Origin: a bacterium
GTDB lineage: Bacteria > 4484-113 > JALSIF01
DNA: 7,697 nucleotides
Direction of reading: 5' to 3'
Assembly (NCBI GenBank): GCA_026981635.1
Contig: JALSIF010000311.1
Coordinates: 1-7,697 of the forward strand
The position numbers and the translations under genes are program-made. The notes under the pieces are model-generated. The model made no database searches and had not been told where the DNA came from. It saw nothing but the letters and a program-made list of their open reading frames with translations. Positions 1-7,697 of the stretch are shown here, piece by piece (the first letter of the stretch is position 1; each line of letters opens with the position of its first letter).

Positions 1-854
1 CCGAGGGACTGGGCTACTTTCTTGCTCAGCGGGTGGCCGACCTGTTCCTCTTTCTCCAGCCCGGTCGGCGGCGGGTAATTGAGCGTAATCTCCTCCTCTG
101 CTTTGGTGATGAGCTCTCCCCCGCCCGCCGCCGCCAGATCGCCTACCGCTCCGCCCGCCACCTTGCCCTCACTGCCATGGAGGTGCTCTACCTGCTCTAC
201 TCCCCCCCCAGCAAGGTAGGCCAGATGGTGGTGGAACAGGAGGGGGTGGAAGAGCTCAAGGCGGCCTATGGGCAGGGCAGAGGCATCGTGGGCCTGGGTA
301 TGCACTACGGCAACTGGGAAGTTTCCGGGGCATATACCGTCTCCCAGGGTATCCGGCTGGTGGCGGTGGGACGCGAACAGCGAGACGAGTTCTTCACCGG
401 ACTCATCTTTCCCCTGCGGGAGAAGCTGGGGATTGAAAATGTAATGCGGGGCAGGCGCTTCAGCTCCAAGCTGGTCAGGGCACTGAGGGAAGGGGCAATG
501 CTTGGCCTGCTGGCCGACCAGAACGGAGGGGCAGACGGCATCTTTGTTCCCTTCTTCGGCCGGCCCGCCTCTACCGTCAGCGGTCCCGCCGTCCTCCACC
601 TCAAGTTTGGCAGCCCCCTTTTCCTCTGCGTGGCGAGGAGACTGGCTCCAGGCCGCTTCCGCTTCATTGCACGGCCGGTCAGGGTTGGGGGACTGGAGGG
701 GCTGTCTCGTGAGGAGCAGGTGAGGAGGGTTACCGAGATCATCAACCGGGCCTATGAGGAGGTAATCCGCCAGGACCCCGAGCAGTGGGTATGGCTCCAC
801 CGCCGCTTCAAAACTCAGCCGGAAGGAGCTCCCGACCCCTACGCCGACCTCTAG
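1..854 (+). CDS. LpxL/HtrB-family lipid A / lysophospholipid acyltransferase (5' partial)
   Basis: This enzyme family moves a fatty acyl chain from an acyl carrier onto a lipid A-type or other glycolipid/phospholipid acceptor at the inner face of the cytoplasmic membrane. The frame is open from base 3 with no stop. A GTG at 33 is probably internal, because the codons before it (EGLGYFLAQR) already read like the usual family N-terminus. About 283 codons are visible against a usual ~290-310, so only about 20 residues are missing. The catalytic H-x4-D/E motif is HYGNWE at 303-320. Other hallmarks are the ADQNGG stretch (from 513), FVPFFGRPAS followed by the SGPAVLHLKFGSPL block (to about 617), and the C-terminal WVWLHRRFK (from 786). 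A basic RRRVIERNL segment near the start is also typical. The acceptor cannot be told from sequence; PIM-type acyltransferases share this fold, so LPS is not proven. The next gene follows after 33 bases. Confidence 0.88.
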   Translation, partial: EGLGYFLAQRVADLFLFLQPGRRRVIERNLLLCFGDELSPARRRQIAYRSARHLALTAMEVLYLLYSPPSKVGQMVVEQEGVEELKAAYGQGRGIVGLGMHYGNWEVSGAYTVSQGIRLVAVGREQRDEFFTGLIFPLREKLGIENVMRGRRFSSKLVRALREGAMLGLLADQNGGADGIFVPFFGRPASTVSGPAVLHLKFGSPLFLCVARRLAPGRFRFIARPVRVGGLEGLSREEQVRRVTEIINRAYEEVIRQDPEQWVWLHRRFKTQPEGAPDPYADL

Positions 855-883
855 GCCGAACCGCGCGGGCCATCGCTCGTCGG

Positions 884-889
884 TAGAAT
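884..889 (+). promoter_or_regulatory. Possible -10 box (TAGAAT) for the lipoprotein gene, leaderless spacing
   Basis: TAGAAT matches the TAnnnT -10 pattern. Its last two bases are the A and T of the ATG at 888, and exactly 7 bases separate it from the next in-frame ATG at 897. Transcription would then begin at or next to ATG 897 and give a leaderless mRNA. No convincing -35 is present: the bases 17 upstream are C/G-rich. There is also no strong Shine-Dalgarno before 888. The intergenic stretch 855-887 shows no clear terminator. Confidence 0.35.
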
Positions 890-2276
890 GGTCAGGATGA
901 ACCGCCCTCTGACAGCAATCGCCCTCGCCCTTATGGCCCTGTTCGTCCCCTGGCTCTTTTCCTCCTGTGCCAACGACATCAGTGTCCGCCAGGGCCAGGG
1001 AGGGAGCGCCCAGAACCTGATTGAGCTCACCATGCTCCTTGACGGGGCGATTGACAATGAGACCTGGTACTACTTCGCCTTCAAGTTTGACGACGACCCC
1101 ACCCTGGCCGAGGCTGAGCAGCCCCAGGCAGAGATCACCGGCAGCGAGGCGGCTAAAAACTGGGACGCCTACGTTTTCTTCCACACCGACGATCTGACCA
1201 ACCTCTCAGCTACCAACCTGAAGTTTCGCAAGCGCTCCCCCGGCGAGCCTACCTCGGGCGAAAATGCCTGGTACAAGAAGCCTCCCCTGCTAGGTGCCCA
1301 GTCCCCCTTCCTGCTGGAGGGGCAGGAGGCTCAGCTTGCGGTGGGAAACTTTTACATCACCATCTACATCCGTACCGCCGGCCTTACCGCTCCCGGCTCC
1401 GACCGCATCCTGGAGGGATTCTGGGTGCAGATGTTTACCGCCAACGCCCCCATTGACCAGGCCGATGATCCCAACCGGGAGGAACCGGCGGCAGTTCTTC
1501 ACGCCCTCAGCCGGGCGGTGTTTGTGCGCAATATAAAGGGGGTAGCGGTCACCAACCAGAGCGAAGGTGGGGTGATCGCCGAGGCTCCCCAGGCCCTCAA
1601 GAAGGCGGCCAAGCTGGTTGACTGGCGGGCGCGCACCTTTGACCGCACCGCCCTGCCCAATGTCCTTCGCATCAGCTGGCGGGTGCGGGACGGGAGATTT
1701 GACCCCACCCACTTCTACTTTATGGTGATCAACTTCACCAACGCGCCCATAGACGATCGGGAGGACCTGCGTCCCTTCCACGACATCTCCTCCGAGGACA
1801 GCCGGGGCAAGAACTGGGATCTTTACATCCTCTACACCGAGGCCAGCGGCTCGCCCCAGTTTCTCTTCCTCAAGCGGGGTCCCAACGACGCCCTGACCGG
1901 AACCCAGCGATGGACCAACAGCCCGCCCCAGAACATCTCTGGACTGGGCTCGGTGCTCAAGAGCTTTAATGCCTCAAACGGTGAGGTCCGCCTGGTCTTT
2001 GACCCCCGTGCCATCACCAACGTTTTCGGCCAACACCCGCCCTGGATCATGGTTGACTTCATCACCGCCGATGCGGGCATAGATGACCTCAACAATCCCC
2101 CCCCGCGGTTGGGGCGGGTGTTTGACTGGCTGGAGCGGCCGCTGGTGATTGACCTCTTCCAGGACCAGCTGCGCATTGATGAGGCGCTGCTTAGACTGGA
2201 GCAGACCGATCCCCAGGGCACCCCGCCGGCGGCCGATGACATCTCCGACTGGGAAGTGGAGCAGCTGTTTGAATGA
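888..2276 (+). CDS. Predicted secreted lipoprotein with two copies of an unrecognised ~165-residue domain
   Basis: I do not recognise the family. The N-terminus is basic (MVRMNR), then hydrophobic (about residues 8-23), and ends in LFSSC with Cys27. This looks like a lipoprotein signal peptide, although Phe at -3 is not a canonical lipobox residue. The mature protein is acidic and rich in Asp, Asn, Pro and aromatic residues, with alternating hydrophobic strands such as NFYITIYIRT and FYFMVINFT, which suggests beta-sandwich domains. Two related halves can be aligned by eye, about 45-212 and 260-420. They share NWD-A/L-Y, an F-x-KR-x-P turn followed by W and PP, and W followed by F-x-T-A-[ND]-A-x-ID. 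A 40-residue linker and an acidic tail flank the second copy. The 462-residue length uses ATG 888. ATG 897 is equally good and lies 7 bases after a TAGAAT box. The gene overlaps the next start by ATGA, so the two are probably co-translated. The role is unknown; surface glycan or protein binding is only a guess from the fold impression. Confidence 0.8.
   Translation: MVRMNRPLTAIALALMALFVPWLFSSCANDISVRQGQGGSAQNLIELTMLLDGAIDNETWYYFAFKFDDDPTLAEAEQPQAEITGSEAAKNWDAYVFFHTDDLTNLSATNLKFRKRSPGEPTSGENAWYKKPPLLGAQSPFLLEGQEAQLAVGNFYITIYIRTAGLTAPGSDRILEGFWVQMFTANAPIDQADDPNREEPAAVLHALSRAVFVRNIKGVAVTNQSEGGVIAEAPQALKKAAKLVDWRARTFDRTALPNVLRISWRVRDGRFDPTHFYFMVINFTNAPIDDREDLRPFHDISSEDSRGKNWDLYILYTEASGSPQFLFLKRGPNDALTGTQRWTNSPPQNISGLGSVLKSFNASNGEVRLVFDPRAITNVFGQHPPWIMVDFITADAGIDDLNNPPPRLGRVFDWLERPLVIDLFQDQLRIDEALLRLEQTDPQGTPPAADDISDWEVEQLFE
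1020..1523 (+). repeat. Protein repeat 1 of the lipoprotein (residues ~45-212)
   Basis: This is the first copy of the internal duplication. Landmarks are WYYFAFKFDDD (60-70), NWDAYVFF (91-98), FRKRSPGEPTSG (113-124), W128 with PP at 132-133, and FWVQMFTANAPID (178-190). The similarity to copy 2 is at protein level; the bases have diverged, so the duplication is old. Confidence 0.65.
1665..2147 (+). repeat. Protein repeat 2 of the lipoprotein (residues ~260-420)
   Basis: This is the second copy. Landmarks are FYFMVINFTNAPID (276-289), NWDLYILY (309-316), FLKRGPNDALTG (327-338), W342 with PP at 346-347, and WIMVDFITADAGID (386-399). The order and spacing follow copy 1. The NAPID motif appears near the start of copy 2 and near the end of copy 1, so the true domain boundaries may be shifted. 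Confidence 0.65.
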
Positions 2277-2995
2277 GGCTCCTAAACCGCATCGCCAACC
2301 TGATCGGCTGGACGGTTATCCTGCTGGTTCTGCTTGCCGCCCTCTTCTGGTGGAAGGGAGTGCCTTATGCAAAGGATCGCATCAAGTCGGTCCTGCGCAC
2401 CCGCTTTGCCCTCTCTCCTTCTGCCGACATTGAGGTGGAGTTCCTGGATCCGAAGGCGGTTATAGAGGGACGCATTGAATCCCTTTCCATCCGCAGCCCG
2501 GAGGCGCTGGTGGGCTCCATCCCGGTGGTGGAGTTTGAGCTTTCCGCTGATGGGCTTGACTTTGACCCCCTTTCCACCCTGGTGCTGGGCGATCCCAAGC
2601 TGGGGGAGATTGAGCGGGGGGAGGTTAGCTTTGCGGTAAGAGAGGAGAGCTTGGAGAAGGTTTGGCGTGAGCGGGCCAGGCGGCTTAGCATCACCGACCT
2701 CGCTATGCGCATAAGCCCTGGGCAGGTAAAGGTGTTTGCCAAGGTGGACCTTCTTTTGATCAAGGTTCCGGCCAGCGTCTATGGAACCTTTGTGGCCGAG
2801 GGGAGCCGGGTGCGCTTTAGGGAAGCCACCCGGGAGGTAGGGGAGGACCAGGGTGCCGAGGCGGGAAAGCTCATTGACCGCCTGGTGGGAAAGCTGGCCC
2901 CGGCCATTGATCTTAGTGGGCTGGGCAGGGGATTCATGGTTGATGAGGTGAGGCTTGAGGAGGGCATGATCGCCGTTCGGGGAAGTGCCGGCTGA
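2273..2995 (+). CDS. DUF2993 / LmeA-like membrane-anchored lipid-binding protein
   Basis: DUF2993 proteins are extracytoplasmic, SMP-like lipid-binding proteins; mycobacterial LmeA binds phospholipid and supports periplasmic lipomannan elongation. Here a single N-terminal membrane segment (about residues 9-28) follows a short basic start, and a ~200-residue extracytoplasmic domain follows. Family-like features are the IEGRIESLSIRS strand (64-74), the EFELSADGLDFDPLSTL stretch (87-103), the LSITDLAMRISPG segment (138-150) and the closing pattern VGKLAPAIDLSGLGRGF then VRLEEGMIAVRG (205-237). Length is 240 residues, normal for the family. The ATG overlaps the lipoprotein stop (ATGA), with GGAG at 2258-2261 as a distant ribosome site, so coupled translation is likely. 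The assignment rests on remembered family patterns. AsmA-like or other lipid-transfer domains are alternatives. The specific lipid is unknown. Confidence 0.65.
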   Translation: MRLLNRIANLIGWTVILLVLLAALFWWKGVPYAKDRIKSVLRTRFALSPSADIEVEFLDPKAVIEGRIESLSIRSPEALVGSIPVVEFELSADGLDFDPLSTLVLGDPKLGEIERGEVSFAVREESLEKVWRERARRLSITDLAMRISPGQVKVFAKVDLLLIKVPASVYGTFVAEGSRVRFREATREVGEDQGAEAGKLIDRLVGKLAPAIDLSGLGRGFMVDEVRLEEGMIAVRGSAG

Positions 2996-3037
2996 TCCTT
3001 TCTGTCACCCGCCGCCGACTGCTAAGCTCAGGGGGCT

Positions 3038-3445
3038 ATGGGACGGGGAGAGCTAAGCGGATTTGTGGCCGGACTGCTGGTCGGGGCGATGATTATGGTA
3101 CTGGCCGGTGGGGCGGTGCCGGGGTCGGCCGAGGATCCGGTGGTTACCCGAAGCTTTCTGGAGGCAAGCTTCACCTGGCAGAGGGTCCCTCTGGTGGGCG
3201 GCGAGGTGGCGGTAGAGCTTCGCCCCGGCGGCGAGCTGGTGGTGGCGGAGGCGGGCGAGGACTTCACCCTCAAGATCACCCCCCAGGAGGGAAGCTTTCT
3301 GGAGCTGCCCGGCTTTGAGGAGCGGGACATCCGCCTCACGGGAGTGAGGCTCGGCCGCACCTACATGTGGCTGGGTGAGGAGCCCATCCGCATCACCTTC
3401 GCCGGCAAGGGGAGGGCCTACTTCAGACGGGGCAGGGTGGAGTAG
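3038..3445 (+). CDS. Small membrane-anchored or secreted extracytoplasmic protein of unknown function
   Basis: This 135-residue protein has an N-terminal hydrophobic segment (about 8-27) ending near GGAVPGSAEDP, so it is either cleaved and secreted or stays anchored. The remainder is beta-rich and charged, with the pattern GGELVVAEAGEDFTLKI (64-80) and a C-terminal FAGKGRAYFRRGRVE. From memory, the sequence after the hydrophobic stretch (GSAEDPVVTRSFLE) resembles small clostridial and related envelope proteins carrying a (S/E)DPLVTKSYVD-like motif, followed by a Gly-rich G-x-x-L-x-x-x-x-G-T/E turn; these have no assigned function. The start is ATG 3038, preceded by AGGGGG (3030-3035). The 42-base gap after the DUF2993 gene shows no strong terminator. 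The DUF5693 gene begins 4 bases after its stop, so the two are very probably co-translated and may act together. Confidence 0.75.
   Translation: MGRGELSGFVAGLLVGAMIMVLAGGAVPGSAEDPVVTRSFLEASFTWQRVPLVGGEVAVELRPGGELVVAEAGEDFTLKITPQEGSFLELPGFEERDIRLTGVRLGRTYMWLGEEPIRITFAGKGRAYFRRGRVE
3439..3442 (+). promoter_or_regulatory. Ribosome binding site deciding the DUF5693 start
   Basis: GGAG lies 7 bases before GTG 3450, inside the last codons of the previous gene. It supports the short start over ATG 3375. Confidence 0.6.
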
Positions 3446-3449
3446 GGCG

Positions 3450-5315
3450 GTGGCGCGCTACGGTCTAAGCCGCAGGAGCCTGCTTGCCATCTCGGCGGTG
3501 CTCATCCTCTTTAGCCTCATCATGGCCCTGCCGCTGCTGTGGCAGCGCTACTCCTTTGACCGCGCCAACCGCACCGTCTACCTGGTGGTGGACGGGGACG
3601 ACCTGGGCTCCCTTGCCGCCTACTGGGGAGAGAAGAATGCCGCCTCCCTGGCCGATCCGGTGGAGGTGTGGGCGGTGGCGCTAAGCGAGCTATCTTTGGA
3701 AGATGCCCTGCGCCGGGGGCTTGCCCGCTGGGAAGGGGGGAGGCTGGTCGCCACCAGTCTACCCCTGGACAGTAAGCGGCAGGGCTGTCACCCCTGGGAG
3801 TGGGCCGACTTCTCTTCTGGCGGCGAGATCGGCTTCCAGAACACTCCCTGGGGCTTTGACCCCAGCCAGCGCTGGATGGTGGACGAGTTTCCCCACCTGC
3901 TCTGGAGAGTGCGCAACCACTTCACCCTGCGGGACCGCTGCCTGGGGCTGACCCTGGACCTCGCCACCCGCGGCGGGCTGGTCATCTTTGAGGGCACCCA
4001 GGTCTTGGGCTACCCCGACCAGCTTGACCAGGTGGCGGAAGAGATCGCCGCGCGAGGAAGCTACTTCGGAAAGGTTGAGTTTGGCCCCCAGGACGGGGAT
4101 GCGGCTCTGGCGGCGAGGCTGGGTGAGCGGGCGCTGGTGGTCCACTCCATCTCCGACCCGGAGCTGGTCCACTATGGGGTGGAGGATGCGGTGGCCCGCT
4201 ACGTGAGGGCGGTGCGCGAGCGGGGCGTCCGGGTGCTCTACCTCAACCTCTTTACGCCGGAGAACGCCACCCCCACCTCGGGCGGCCGGGGGCTGGGACC
4301 GAGCATGAAGCTGATTGATGAGCTGAGTCGCCGGCTCAGAGTAGAGGGCTACCGGCTGGCTTCGGCCAGCGAAAGGCTGGAGCTTCCCCTGGAGATGCTG
4401 GAGCTGGGCAGGGCCGACCGGGGCTGGCGGCTGGCCCTGGCCCTGCTTGCCCTGGGCTTTGGCTTCTGGATGCTGGAGCTCTCCCTGCCCCTAACCAGAC
4501 CCTGGCGCCTCTACCTGGTCCTTGGGCTGGCCCTGCTTGTTCTCCTTGGCGGGACGGTCTCCTCTTATCTTGGCCGGGAGCTTTCCGGGCTCATCGTGGG
4601 GTTCAGTGCGCCCCTGATCGGGGTGCTGGTGGGGTTGGGAATGCTTACCCGCTCCCGCATCTCGCCCCTTTCCACTCTATACGCCTTCCTGGCGGCCAAC
4701 CTGATCACCCTGGCGGGTGGGCTGGTGATCTATGCCCTCTTCTCCACCCCGGCCGGGGTGCTTCGCCAGGAGAGCCTGAGGGGCATCACCCTGCTTCTCC
4801 TGCTTCCCCTCCTGGTGCTGGCGGCAAACTTCTGGCGGCTTAGGGATTACGCCTCCACCAGGTCGGTCTATGAGCGAATTGAGAGGCTGCTTGCCGAGCG
4901 GGTGAGCTTTACCGATCTTGCTGTGATGGGCCTTCTTCTGGTTGGGGTTGCGGTGATGGTCATAAGAAGCGGCAACGAGGCAGCCGGGCTGGTCAGCCAG
5001 CTTGAGCTGGCCCTTCGGGAGAAGGTGGAGGCCCTGCTTGCGGTCAGGCCACGCACCAAGGAGCTCCTCGGCCAGCCGATGCTCTTTCTTGCCGCTGCCG
5101 CCCTGGCCGGCCGGCGTGAGACCCTGGCCTTCCTTGCCCTGATGGCCTTTGCAGTGGCCGAGGTCTCGGTGCTGAATACCTTCCTCCACAACCAGACCCC
5201 CATCCTGGTCTCCCTCATCCGGGTGGGGCTGGGGATGGCCTGGGGCCTGGTGGTGGGCCTCATCCTCTACTGGCTGGCAGACCTGGTGCTCAGAAGGCTC
5301 GGGCGGGGAGGCTAG
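3450..5315 (+). CDS. DUF5693 family polytopic membrane protein
   Basis: Family function is unknown; members are commonly encoded next to csaB. The 621 residues comprise an N-terminal membrane segment (about 11-30), an extracytoplasmic domain (about 35-325) and roughly eight C-terminal membrane helices (from about 327). Hallmarks are TVYLVVDGDDL (42-52), ELSLEDALRRG (80-90), VVHSISDPEL (230-239), then AVARYVRAVRERGVRVLYLN (247-266). Late in the protein, RSGNE (506-510) is followed by LREKVEALLAVRPRTKELLG (522-541) and by the LNTF / TPILVSLIR pair (575-591). I chose GTG 3450, 4 bases after the previous stop, because GGAG (3439-3442) sits 7 bases upstream. The longer frame from ATG 3375 would overlap the previous gene by 71 bases and adds a Ser/Pro/Arg-rich tail unlike the family. 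An unusual 101-165 region carries the only two cysteines (113 and 164). csaB follows after 5 bases, so a role in wall-polymer export or modification is inferred. Confidence 0.85.
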   Translation: MARYGLSRRSLLAISAVLILFSLIMALPLLWQRYSFDRANRTVYLVVDGDDLGSLAAYWGEKNAASLADPVEVWAVALSELSLEDALRRGLARWEGGRLVATSLPLDSKRQGCHPWEWADFSSGGEIGFQNTPWGFDPSQRWMVDEFPHLLWRVRNHFTLRDRCLGLTLDLATRGGLVIFEGTQVLGYPDQLDQVAEEIAARGSYFGKVEFGPQDGDAALAARLGERALVVHSISDPELVHYGVEDAVARYVRAVRERGVRVLYLNLFTPENATPTSGGRGLGPSMKLIDELSRRLRVEGYRLASASERLELPLEMLELGRADRGWRLALALLALGFGFWMLELSLPLTRPWRLYLVLGLALLVLLGGTVSSYLGRELSGLIVGFSAPLIGVLVGLGMLTRSRISPLSTLYAFLAANLITLAGGLVIYALFSTPAGVLRQESLRGITLLLLLPLLVLAANFWRLRDYASTRSVYERIERLLAERVSFTDLAVMGLLLVGVAVMVIRSGNEAAGLVSQLELALREKVEALLAVRPRTKELLGQPMLFLAAAALAGRRETLAFLALMAFAVAEVSVLNTFLHNQTPILVSLIRVGLGMAWGLVVGLILYWLADLVLRRLGRGG

Positions 5316-5320
5316 CGGCG

Positions 5321-6358
5321 GTGCGCCTGCTTCTGGTGGGCTACTTTGGGGCGGGAAACCTGGGCGACGAGCTGATCCTTAAGGCGGCAGCAGGCTTTCT
5401 GCTGGAAAGGTTTCCTAAGGCAAAGCTGCTCTATATCAGCCGCGGTCAGGTTGACCCTCCCCATCCGAGCCTGAGGCCCCTCCACTTTCTGGACCTGGGC
5501 CGCATCGCCTACTGGGCGGCCAAGGCAACTGCGGCCATCTTTCCCGGCGGGAGCGTCCTGCAAAACAGGACCAGCCTGAGGAGTCTCTTCTACTATCGGA
5601 CAGTGGCGGGCTTGCTCAGGCGTTTCGGCACCCCCTACTTCATGCTGGGGCAGGGGATCGGTCCCCTCGTCGGCAGGGTTGCCCAGGGCTATGCGCGGGA
5701 GGTGCTTAGTGGGGCAGAGTGGATTTCGGCCCGCGATCAAGAAGCCTTCATTGAGATGGCAAACCTTCTCGGGCCCAACCGCAAGCTTCACTTGGGAGCG
5801 GACACGGCTCTACTTACCCCTCCGCAGGAGCCAGCTCAGGTGGAGAGGGAGCAGGCTCGCAGGCTGGTAGTGGTTCCTCGTGCCTGGCTGGACCTGGAAG
5901 GGCTGGCTGGGGCCCTGGGTCGAATTGAGAGGGCGCAGTTTGAGGAGGCGGTGGTGGCCTACTTTGAACCTGGCGAGGAGGAGCTGGCGGCGAGGGTGGC
6001 AGAGCTGATTTCACCCCTCACCAGCGGGATCAGGGTAGTTGCCCCCTCCGTTGATCACCCCACCATGCCATTCCTAGGAAGCTCACTGGTCATAAGCTGT
6101 CGCTACCACGGGGTGCTGCTTTCCGCCTTGGCGGGAGTGCCCGCCATCGCCCTGGGCAGGGACCCCAAGCTGATTGCCCTGTCCGGCTCCTTGGCTCTCC
6201 CTTTGGCCGAGCGGCCAGAACAGCTCCCTCAGCTTATTGAACCCATTCTGGAAGAGGGCAGGGGAGGGAAGCTTCAGGCCGCCCTCCACCGCCTGCGCCA
6301 GCGAGCCCAGGTGGCCTGGGAGGAGCTCGCCCGGCGGCTTAGCGCGGTAGCCGGCTGA
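5321..6358 (+). CDS. csaB: Polysaccharide pyruvyl transferase, CsaB type
   Basis: CsaB transfers pyruvate from phosphoenolpyruvate as a ketal onto an amino-sugar of the secondary cell-wall polymer; SLH-domain proteins then bind that pyruvylated glycan. The GT-B-like N-terminal half starts with LLLVGYFGAGNLGDELIL (3-20), the standard G(Y/F)G-x-GNxGDE motif. FPGGSVLQNRTSLRSLFYY (74-92) replaces the usual GGGSLLQD-TS-RSL-YY, and LGQGIGPL (109-116) follows. SARDQEA (136-142) matches the S/T-x-RD-x-x family motif, and GADTALL (159-165) matches the A-D-x-A/S-L pattern. The C-terminal half carries SCRYHGVLLSALAGVP (259-274), the S-x-R-x-H motif of the family, then DPKL. Length (345) is normal. It starts at GTG 5321, 5 bases after the DUF5693 stop, with GGGGAG (5305-5310) as ribosome site. 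It lacks membrane segments and should act in the cytoplasm before polymer export. Confidence 0.88.
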   Translation: MRLLLVGYFGAGNLGDELILKAAAGFLLERFPKAKLLYISRGQVDPPHPSLRPLHFLDLGRIAYWAAKATAAIFPGGSVLQNRTSLRSLFYYRTVAGLLRRFGTPYFMLGQGIGPLVGRVAQGYAREVLSGAEWISARDQEAFIEMANLLGPNRKLHLGADTALLTPPQEPAQVEREQARRLVVVPRAWLDLEGLAGALGRIERAQFEEAVVAYFEPGEEELAARVAELISPLTSGIRVVAPSVDHPTMPFLGSSLVISCRYHGVLLSALAGVPAIALGRDPKLIALSGSLALPLAERPEQLPQLIEPILEEGRGGKLQAALHRLRQRAQVAWEELARRLSAVAG

Positions 6359-6364
6359 TATAAT
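6356..6364 (+). promoter_or_regulatory. Extended -10 promoter (TGATATAAT) for uppS-cdsA
   Basis: TG-A-TATAAT is a perfect extended -10 for the housekeeping sigma factor, striking in such GC-rich DNA. Its TGA is also the csaB stop codon. The -35 position 17 bases upstream (GGCTTA, 6336-6341) is weak, which an extended -10 tolerates. Transcription would start near 6371, giving a leader of about 55 bases before ATG 6427 and letting uppS and cdsA be expressed independently of the upstream genes. Confidence 0.6.
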
Positions 6365-6377
6365 CAGACCCAACTTA

Positions 6378-6419
6378 GCCCGCCCCGGTGACCAGCAGGG
6401 GGCAGGCGAAGGGGCAGGG
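6378..6419 (+). promoter_or_regulatory. uppS leader with two competing hairpins over the ribosome binding site
   Basis: The C-rich segment 6378-6386 (GCCCGCCCC) can pair with 6399-6407 (GGGGCAGGC), nine pairs with one mismatch and a 12-base loop. Most of it can instead pair with 6411-6418 (GGGGCAGG), a second copy of the same octamer 12 bases later, which overlaps the uppS ribosome site AGGG (6416-6419). The two pairings exclude each other, so one leaves the ribosome site free and the other hides it. Whether this regulates or is chance in GC-rich DNA cannot be decided here. Confidence 0.35.
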
Positions 6420-6426
6420 TTTAAGT

Positions 6427-7155
6427 ATGGATCACTCCAAGGGCCGACTTCCCCGCCACATCGCCATCATCATGGACGGCAACGGCCGCTGGGGCCTTCG
6501 CCACGGAAAATCTCGCATTGAGGGCCACCGCCAGGCGGTTAATGCCATTGAGCGGGTGGTGGACCGGGTGCTGGAGCTGGGCATTCCCTACCTAACCCTC
6601 TACTGCTTCTCGGAGGACAACCTGAACCGGCCCCTGGACGAGGTAAGCCAGCTCTTCTCCCTCTTTGAGGAGGTGCTGAGCACCAAGGTGGACAAGCTGC
6701 GGGAGCAGGGGGTCAGGCTGGTGGTGTCGGGCAAGCTATACAGCTTGGCCCCGGAGCTGGCCGAGCTTTTCCGCTCCGCCGAGGAGGCCACCAAGGAGGG
6801 CAATCGTCTCACCCTGGTGCTGGCGGTGATGTACTCGGGCAGGGAGGAGATCGTAGAGGCGGCCCGTCGCCTGGCCACTCGCTGCATGCTGGGAGAGATA
6901 GAGCCCGAGGAGATCAACCGCGAGCTGTTTGCCCGCCACCTCTACCATCCCGAGATCCCTGACCCCGACCTGCTCATCCGCTCTTCGGGAGAAAAGCGCC
7001 TGTCCGACTTTCTCCTCTGGCAGCTTGCCTACACCGAGCTAATCTTCACTGACACCCTGTGGCCCGACTTTGACCGGAAAGAGATTGATGCGGCCATTGA
7101 GGAGTACCGGGCTAGGGAGCGGCGCTTCGGTCGGGTGGTTGCCGAGTCCAAGTGA
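6427..7155 (+). CDS. uppS: Undecaprenyl diphosphate synthase (cis-prenyltransferase)
   Basis: UppS condenses isopentenyl diphosphates onto farnesyl diphosphate in cis to make the C55 carrier for peptidoglycan and surface polymers. It is cytosolic and membrane-associated. The 242-residue protein shows HIAIIMDGNGRW (11-22) with catalytic Asp17, GHRQAV (33-38), and DPDLLIRSSGEKRLSDFLLW (179-198) followed by AYTEL and WPDF (212-215). I chose ATG 6427 because AGGG (6416-6419) lies 7 bases upstream and MDHSKGRLPRHIAIIMD has family length. GTG 6388 would add 13 unmatched residues and has no ribosome site. Odd points: the usual FS(T/S)ENWxRP is FSEDNLNRP (61-69), with Trp replaced by Leu, and the usual NYGGR is MYSGR (135-139). 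Core catalytic residues remain, so the enzyme is probably active, perhaps with altered chain length. A promoter of its own lies upstream, and cdsA overlaps its stop. Confidence 0.95.
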   Translation: MDHSKGRLPRHIAIIMDGNGRWGLRHGKSRIEGHRQAVNAIERVVDRVLELGIPYLTLYCFSEDNLNRPLDEVSQLFSLFEEVLSTKVDKLREQGVRLVVSGKLYSLAPELAELFRSAEEATKEGNRLTLVLAVMYSGREEIVEAARRLATRCMLGEIEPEEINRELFARHLYHPEIPDPDLLIRSSGEKRLSDFLLWQLAYTELIFTDTLWPDFDRKEIDAAIEEYRARERRFGRVVAESK

Positions 7156-7697
7156 TCATAAGGATCGTAAGCGGCATCGTCCTCGGGGTGGGAGTGGCTC
7201 TGATCTTCACCCTCCATCCGCTGGCGGCGGCGGCACTCATCTGGCTGGGCATAAGCCTGGGGCTGGCCGAGGTGCGCCACCTCTTGGGGGAGAGCTGGCA
7301 GACGCCGGGCTATCTGGTTCAGGTGCTCCTGCTTGCCTTGGTGGTCTACACCTTCGTGGCTGGCGGACCCGCCGGTACTCCTCTGACCGCCGGATGGCTG
7401 GCTTTCCTGGCCGGGGTCTTTTTGCTCGTTCCCCTGGGGGAGAAGATGCTTGCTGGCCCAGTTGAGCCCGGGGCGGCCTTAAGGGGCTATGTGGGCTCTG
7501 TCTTCGGGGTGGCGGCGCTGATTCTGGCCACCTCCACCGCCCTGCTGGTGAGCCCTGGCCTCTTCCCCTGGGCCCTGCCCGGTGCCCTGGCCGTATGTTG
7601 GGCGGGAGACGCCGGTGGCCTGTTTGCCGGCAGCCTCCTGGGCAGGGAGAAGCTTGCCCCCGCCCTCAGCCCCAAGAAGACCCGGGAAGGGGCGGTG
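7152..7697 (+). CDS. cdsA: Phosphatidate cytidylyltransferase (CDP-diacylglycerol synthase), 3' partial
   Basis: CdsA makes CDP-diacylglycerol from phosphatidic acid and CTP, the branch point for bacterial phospholipids, in the cytoplasmic membrane. The frame from GTG 7152 is open for 182 codons to the window end; family members are about 260-280 residues, so about two thirds is visible. Several hydrophobic helices occur (about 5-40, 55-70, 79-96, 112-134 and 138-150). The signature region is at the edge: WAGDAGGLFAGSLLGREKLA (150-169, with Asp153), then PALSPKKTREG (170-180), the start of the S-x-x-K-T-x-E-G CDP-alcohol signature. The start GTG overlaps the uppS TGA (GTGA), and no strong ribosome site is visible, so translation is probably coupled to uppS. 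The uppS-cdsA pair is a common bacterial order; dxr and rseP often follow, but they lie outside this window. Confidence 0.93.
   Translation, partial: MIIRIVSGIVLGVGVALIFTLHPLAAAALIWLGISLGLAEVRHLLGESWQTPGYLVQVLLLALVVYTFVAGGPAGTPLTAGWLAFLAGVFLLVPLGEKMLAGPVEPGAALRGYVGSVFGVAALILATSTALLVSPGLFPWALPGALAVCWAGDAGGLFAGSLLGREKLAPALSPKKTREGAV

What the first reader, a model, noticed from the sequence alone, without database searches (positions are those of the whole stretch)
1..7697. Near-absence of TCGA and matching codon-context bias
Reading the whole window by eye I found only one TCGA (5920-5923). A rough mononucleotide expectation for this length and composition is about two dozen, and a dinucleotide-aware guess is around ten. 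The avoidance is visible in codon choice. Ile before Asp/Glu is nearly always ATT (about twenty cases, e.g. 1021, 2475, 6545) or ATA (e.g. 1750, 2463, 6899), and I saw no ATC-GA. Phe before Asp/Glu is TTT, not TTC, although TTC is common elsewhere. Leu before Asp/Glu is CTT or CTG, not CTC. Other palindromes such as GATC, GGCC and AGCT are frequent. TCGA is the TaqI-type restriction site known from Thermus, so a TCGA restriction-modification system, present or past, may have shaped this genome.
Basis: partly seen in the sequence, partly recalled or inferred. Interest (0 to 1): 0.6.

Follow-up and report, generated by a model that had tools for sequence, protein, structure and literature searches.

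The report
Genome-wide avoidance of TCGA
This bacterium's genome has purged almost every copy of the four-letter word TCGA, even changing its codon choices to do so, which is the known footprint of a DNA-cutting defence enzyme aimed at TCGA, although no such enzyme gene was found in the incomplete assembly.

Summary
Observation confirmed. The window has one TCGA (5920) against 14.9 expected by second-order Markov and 35.5 by synonymous-codon shuffling. Across 590 kb of the same 1.75-Mb draft genome it is 101 against 1,156 (O/E 0.087), the lowest of all 256 tetramers; 79 unrelated loci have median 1.06 and minimum 0.44. At synonymous positions TCGA stands at 2-3% of expectation (codon phases 1 and 2) and 24% (phase 3). 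Nine same-class genomes are at about 0.6-1.4, so the trait belongs to this lineage. TCGA is kept where RNA function needs it: 29 of 32 tRNA T-loop pattern hits read TTCGA.

Interpretation partly supported. The pattern is what self-restriction by a TCGA type II R-M system would leave. But no TaqI-type gene was found, and the two DNA methyltransferases present look like GATC (DpnII-type pair, recently imported) and GANTC (orphan). The TCGA system is therefore unseen (85%-complete draft, many contigs masked) or recently lost. Helicobacter pylori is a published precedent (TCGA O/E 0.05, beta-class TCGA methyltransferase), so this is a strong new case of a known phenomenon. C-to-T mutation at TCGA is the main rival.

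The parts
1..7697 (.). Whole window: TCGA-depleted DNA, 1 site observed
5920..5923 (.). The only TCGA; codon phase 3 (GGT|CGA, Gly-Arg) in the polysaccharide pyruvyl transferase gene
3..854 (+). Lipid A acyltransferase-like gene (5' end cut); host gene showing the codon-context bias
   Evidence: Pfam PF03279
888..2276 (+). Unassigned 462-aa ORF, lipoprotein-like start; host gene showing the bias
   Evidence: no Pfam
2273..2995 (+). LmeA-like gene; host gene showing the bias
   Evidence: PF11209
3038..3445 (+). Unassigned 135-aa ORF
3375..5315 (+). DUF5693 membrane protein gene
   Evidence: PF18949
5321..6358 (+). Polysaccharide pyruvyl transferase gene; carries the single TCGA
   Evidence: PF04230
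6388..7155 (+). Undecaprenyl diphosphate synthase gene
   Evidence: PF01255
7152..7697 (+). Phosphatidate cytidylyltransferase gene (3' end cut)
   Evidence: PF01148

Best explanation
The genome has been purged of TCGA by long self-restriction from an orthodox type II R-M system that cuts TCGA: sites that escape methylation are cut now and then, so any synonymous change that removes a site is favoured. Shown: extreme, genome-wide, lineage-specific depletion of this one palindrome, with codon choice following it and functional RNAs exempt. Inferred: the agent is a TCGA R-M system, and because synonymous positions stand at only 2-3% of expectation it is either still present (unassembled, unbinned or in masked contigs) or was lost only recently, since neutral mutation would otherwise have restored sites.
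For: O/E 0.087 over 590 kb, lowest of 256 tetramers, next palindrome 0.515. Synonymous shuffle O/E 0.026/0.021/0.24 in codon phases 1/2/3, against 0.70-1.37 in two relatives of similar GC. Phe TTC is 0.6% before GA against 45% before other G; Ile ATC 2.2% against 78%. Intergenic 10 against 48.9, O/E 0.20, against 0.62 and 0.38 in relatives. Same-class genomes 0.70-1.33. tRNA T-loops keep TTCGA: 29 against 3 TTCAA, so the site is tolerated where needed. Published survey: only orthodox type II R-M sites are avoided, long-resident systems most, and traces of lost systems are common (PMC4687349). H. pylori: TCGA O/E 0.05 (PMC3849833) with an m6A TCGA methyltransferase (PMC3936762).
Against: No TCGA R-M gene seen: TaqI families absent, and the only two DNA methyltransferases found look GATC- and GANTC-specific. 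Phase 3, where no synonymous C-to-T escape exists, is depleted about ten times less than phases 1 and 2, and intergenic depletion is also weaker; uniform selection against the site predicts equal depletion.
Confidence: 0.72

Rival explanations
1. Mutation, not selection: the C of TCGA is unusually mutable (for example cytosine-5 methylation at TCGA followed by deamination), turning TCGA into TTGA/TCAA.
For: Depletion is strongest where a synonymous C-to-T (either strand) is available (phases 1, 2: 0.02-0.03) and weaker in phase 3 (0.24). TTGA in phase 2 is 2.15-fold and TCAA in phase 1 1.7-fold over shuffle. Shifts toward transition products were stronger in this genome than in two relatives for Val, Leu and Ser.
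Against: No cytosine-5 methyltransferase (PF00145) in the genome. Phase 3 is still four-fold depleted. Intergenic TTGA/TCAA are not in excess (O/E 1.06; relatives 1.15 and 0.97), and the Ile ATT:ATA shift before GA is about the same as in G001, which does not avoid TCGA.
Confidence: 0.15
2. The one R-M pair present (contig C275, DpnII-family endonuclease plus beta-class methyltransferase) itself recognises TCGA, a new specificity for the DpnII family.
For: It is the only complete R-M pair detected, and TCGA is the only extremely avoided tetramer.
Against: PF04556 DpnII at 2.6e-73, about 32% identical over nearly full length to plasmid-borne type II endonucleases. A related pair in G009 sits in a genome with GATC 0.47 and TCGA 0.83. 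The pair's genes are 47% and 35% GC among 64-70% GC neighbours, so too recent to have purged the genome.
Confidence: 0.06
3. Selection acts on RNA or translation, for example an endoribonuclease cutting unstructured UCGA in mRNA, sparing folded tRNAs.
For: tRNA and tmRNA sites are kept and coding depletion exceeds intergenic.
Against: Intergenic DNA is also depleted (10 against 48.9); the palindrome fits a DNA enzyme, and no nuclease specific for UCGA is known to me.
Confidence: 0.03
4. Artefact: library cut with a TCGA enzyme or assembly bias.
For: Fragmented, metagenome-like assembly (317 contigs).
Against: Synonymous codons replace the missing sites (ATT for ATC before GA), which no wet-lab or assembly artefact could produce; contigs run to 18 kb.
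Confidence: 0.01

Closest known systems
Helicobacter pylori TCGA avoidance (HpyV / M.HpyAX hp0260, M.Hpy99VII)
   Same: Extreme TCGA depletion (O/E 0.05 by base composition, PMC3849833; about 300 sites per genome from methylome counts, PMC3936762). In strain HP14039 the methyltransferase is listed without a partner endonuclease (PMC6381644), as would follow loss of an R gene.
   Different: Different, high-GC lineage; here no TCGA methyltransferase was found; the H. pylori enzyme's sequence could not be fetched for comparison.
Restriction-site avoidance and traces of lost R-M systems (Rusinov et al. 2015, PMC4687349)
   Same: Underrepresentation of one palindrome, including genomes that lack the cognate system.
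   Different: Far beyond their 0.78 threshold; I could not compare with their most extreme values.
TaqI / TthHB8I of Thermus
   Same: Recognition sequence TCGA (TaqI: PMC5587805; TthHB8I from memory).
   Different: No TaqI-family gene detected here.

Membership tests
Restriction-site avoidance by an orthodox type II R-M system | Site O/E at or below 0.78 genome-wide | tested here: met
   0.087 over 590 kb
Restriction-site avoidance by an orthodox type II R-M system | Specific to one palindrome, not all TCG/CGA words | tested here: met
   GTAC, TGCA, CGCG and CTAG are lowered only moderately (0.51-0.55)
Restriction-site avoidance by an orthodox type II R-M system | Cognate R-M genes, or remnants, in the genome or close relatives | tested here: inconclusive
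   None found, but genome 85% complete, contigs under 3 kb read as N, and no relative closer than class
Restriction-site avoidance by an orthodox type II R-M system | Methylation of the residual sites | not testable with these tools
   No long-read signal data
TaqI R-M family | RE_TaqI endonuclease domain PF09573 | tested here: not met
   the Thermus control genome matches
TaqI R-M family | Gamma-class methyltransferase with TaqI_C PF12950 | tested here: not met
   the Thermus control genome matches
DpnII (GATC) R-M family, pair on contig C275 | DpnII endonuclease domain beside an adenine methyltransferase | tested here: met
   PF04556 2.6e-73 and PF01555 1e-61
DpnII (GATC) R-M family, pair on contig C275 | GATC specificity | not testable with these tools
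   Inferred from the family and from G009
GANTC methyltransferase (CcrM/HinfI/HpyAIV), orphan on contig C157 | Close relative paired with a GANTC endonuclease | tested here: met
   53% identical methyltransferase in G006 next to an HpyAIV-family endonuclease, 202 bits against cutoff 160

The most novel reading that the evidence does not exclude
TCGA is held near zero by an agent outside the known TCGA R-M families, such as a new endonuclease, a changed-specificity DpnII-fold enzyme, or a TCGA-specific mutator, still encoded in this lineage.
Probability: 0.12. Interest if true: 0.6.

Novelty: new member of a known kind. Interest (0 to 1): 0.33.

Why it matters
It is an unusually clean case of restriction-site avoidance: 2-3% of expectation at most synonymous positions, one lineage only, with same-class relatives as controls. 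It predicts a TCGA-specific system in this species or its near kin, and the contrast between codon phases gives a way to separate selection against a site from mutation at the site.

Tried and rejected
TaqI, Eco57I, N6_Mtase, D12 and C5 methyltransferase families: none in the genome. The two methyltransferases present as the cause: rejected, see rivals. tRNA T-loop (G57 to A57) as a test of avoidance strength: no shift, so tRNA constraint wins; it does not separate selection from mutation. GANTC/TCNGA depletion first looked special (0.37, 0.43) but high-GC relatives are similar, so mostly codon usage. CRISPR spacers from L118 searched in viral contigs, to test whether the host's viruses also avoid TCGA: no match. 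Viral-contig search with the DpnII-like endonuclease: nothing. AT-rich imported ORFs as a clock of purging: too few sites. Artefact by TCGA digestion: rejected by codon replacement.

Full report
Observation. TCGA occurs once in the window (5920), against 25.1, 18.6 and 14.9 expected under zero-, first- and second-order models; no simulated window of 1,000 reached one or fewer, and synonymous shuffling of the window's genes predicts 35.5. The codon claims hold: no ATC, TTC, CTC or GTC precedes GA in the window, though all four are common elsewhere.

Genome. The window is contig C311 of a 1.745-Mb, 317-contig, 85%-complete assembly. I fetched 102 further contigs; 36 of the 103, all under 3 kb, read as N, leaving 590 kb. 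TCGA is found 101 times against 1,156 (second order) or 1,538 (first order), O/E 0.087, the lowest of 256 tetramers; the next palindromes are GTAC 0.515, TGCA 0.54, CGCG 0.54 and CTAG 0.55. Samples of nine same-class genomes give 0.70-1.33 by the same measure; 79 loci from diverse bacteria have median 1.06 and minimum 0.44. The trait is therefore lineage-specific and extreme.

DNA-level signature. Shuffling synonymous codons within genes, TCGA is 5, 46 and 17 observed against 190, 2,213 and 70 expected in phases 1, 2 and 3 (0.026, 0.021, 0.24); relatives G001 and G007 give 0.82/0.75/1.37 and 1.01/0.84/0.70. Gene calls came from a simple codon-usage predictor of my own, not a standard gene finder. 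Intergenic DNA has 10 against 48.9. Of the 101 sites, at least 15 lie in tRNA genes and two in tmRNA. By pattern, 29 T-loops read TTCGA and 3 TTCAA, a share of TTCGA no lower than in relatives. So TCGA is not lethal; it is removed wherever nothing else needs it.

Cause. Published work finds such avoidance essentially only for orthodox type II R-M sites, stronger for long-resident systems, and also in genomes that have lost the system (PMC4687349). H. pylori shows TCGA O/E 0.05 (PMC3849833) with a beta-class m6A TCGA methyltransferase (PMC3936762), listed without a partner endonuclease in one strain (PMC6381644). This is the closest precedent and shows that a TaqI-like gene is not required.

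Search for the agent. No TaqI endonuclease, TaqI_C, Eco57I, N6_Mtase, D12 or cytosine-5 methyltransferase was found. Two N6_N4 methyltransferases were. The C275 gene is followed by a DpnII-family endonuclease; both genes are AT-rich in GC-rich surroundings, so recent, and a related pair exists in G009, where GATC but not TCGA is clearly lowered. The C157 gene is CcrM-like; its relative in G006 adjoins an HpyAIV-family endonuclease, so GANTC is inferred. G006's TCGA is mildly low (0.6-0.7) and G003's near normal, which does not suggest a TCGA role. The masked small contigs and the missing 15% leave room for an unseen system; whether the genome searches covered the masked contigs is not known.

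Timing (inference). Synonymous sites at 2-3% of their expectation imply little neutral recovery, so the force acts now or ceased recently.

Unresolved. Phase 3 is depleted about ten times less than phases 1 and 2, and intergenic DNA less than coding. C-to-T escape is synonymous only in phases 1 and 2, so a mutational component, or site loss still out of equilibrium through the fastest mutation, is possible. Against pure deamination: no cytosine-5 methyltransferase, no TTGA/TCAA excess between genes, and four-fold depletion even in phase 3.

Verdict. Real, very strong, and of a known kind.

Noticed in passing
L041 622-2487 (contig C275): Recently imported DpnII-type R-M pair (47% and 35% GC among 64-70% GC neighbours), just downstream of a superoxide dismutase-like gene.
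   Followed up: yes
L042 14447-15322 (contig C157): Orphan CcrM-like methyltransferase of native GC content; relatives in G003 and G006, in G006 with an HpyAIV-family endonuclease.
   Followed up: yes
L118 31-470: Small CRISPR array, repeat about 36 nt (ATTCAAATCATTGCCCCGATTCAAGGGGATTACGAC); three spacers tested had no exact match in viral contigs.
   Followed up: partly
whole genome sample: CGCG, GTAC and TGCA are also moderately depleted against synonymous shuffling (0.36, 0.38, 0.60), more than in the relatives sampled; perhaps further old R-M systems.
   Followed up: no
L039-L040 (G009), L033-L034 (G006): GGCC is strongly depleted in G009 (O/E about 0.2) and GATC in G006 (about 0.33): two further candidate avoidance cases in the class.
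   Followed up: no
L042 7013-8110: AT-rich, apparently imported ORF that by eye resembles the N-terminal part of type I restriction subunits, on the same contig as the orphan methyltransferase; not searched.
   Followed up: no
L004 5784 and L056 10279: Two of the retained noncoding TCGA sites lie in the same context, GTCGAAAGGAGGT, overlapping a strong ribosome-binding-site-like sequence.
   Followed up: no
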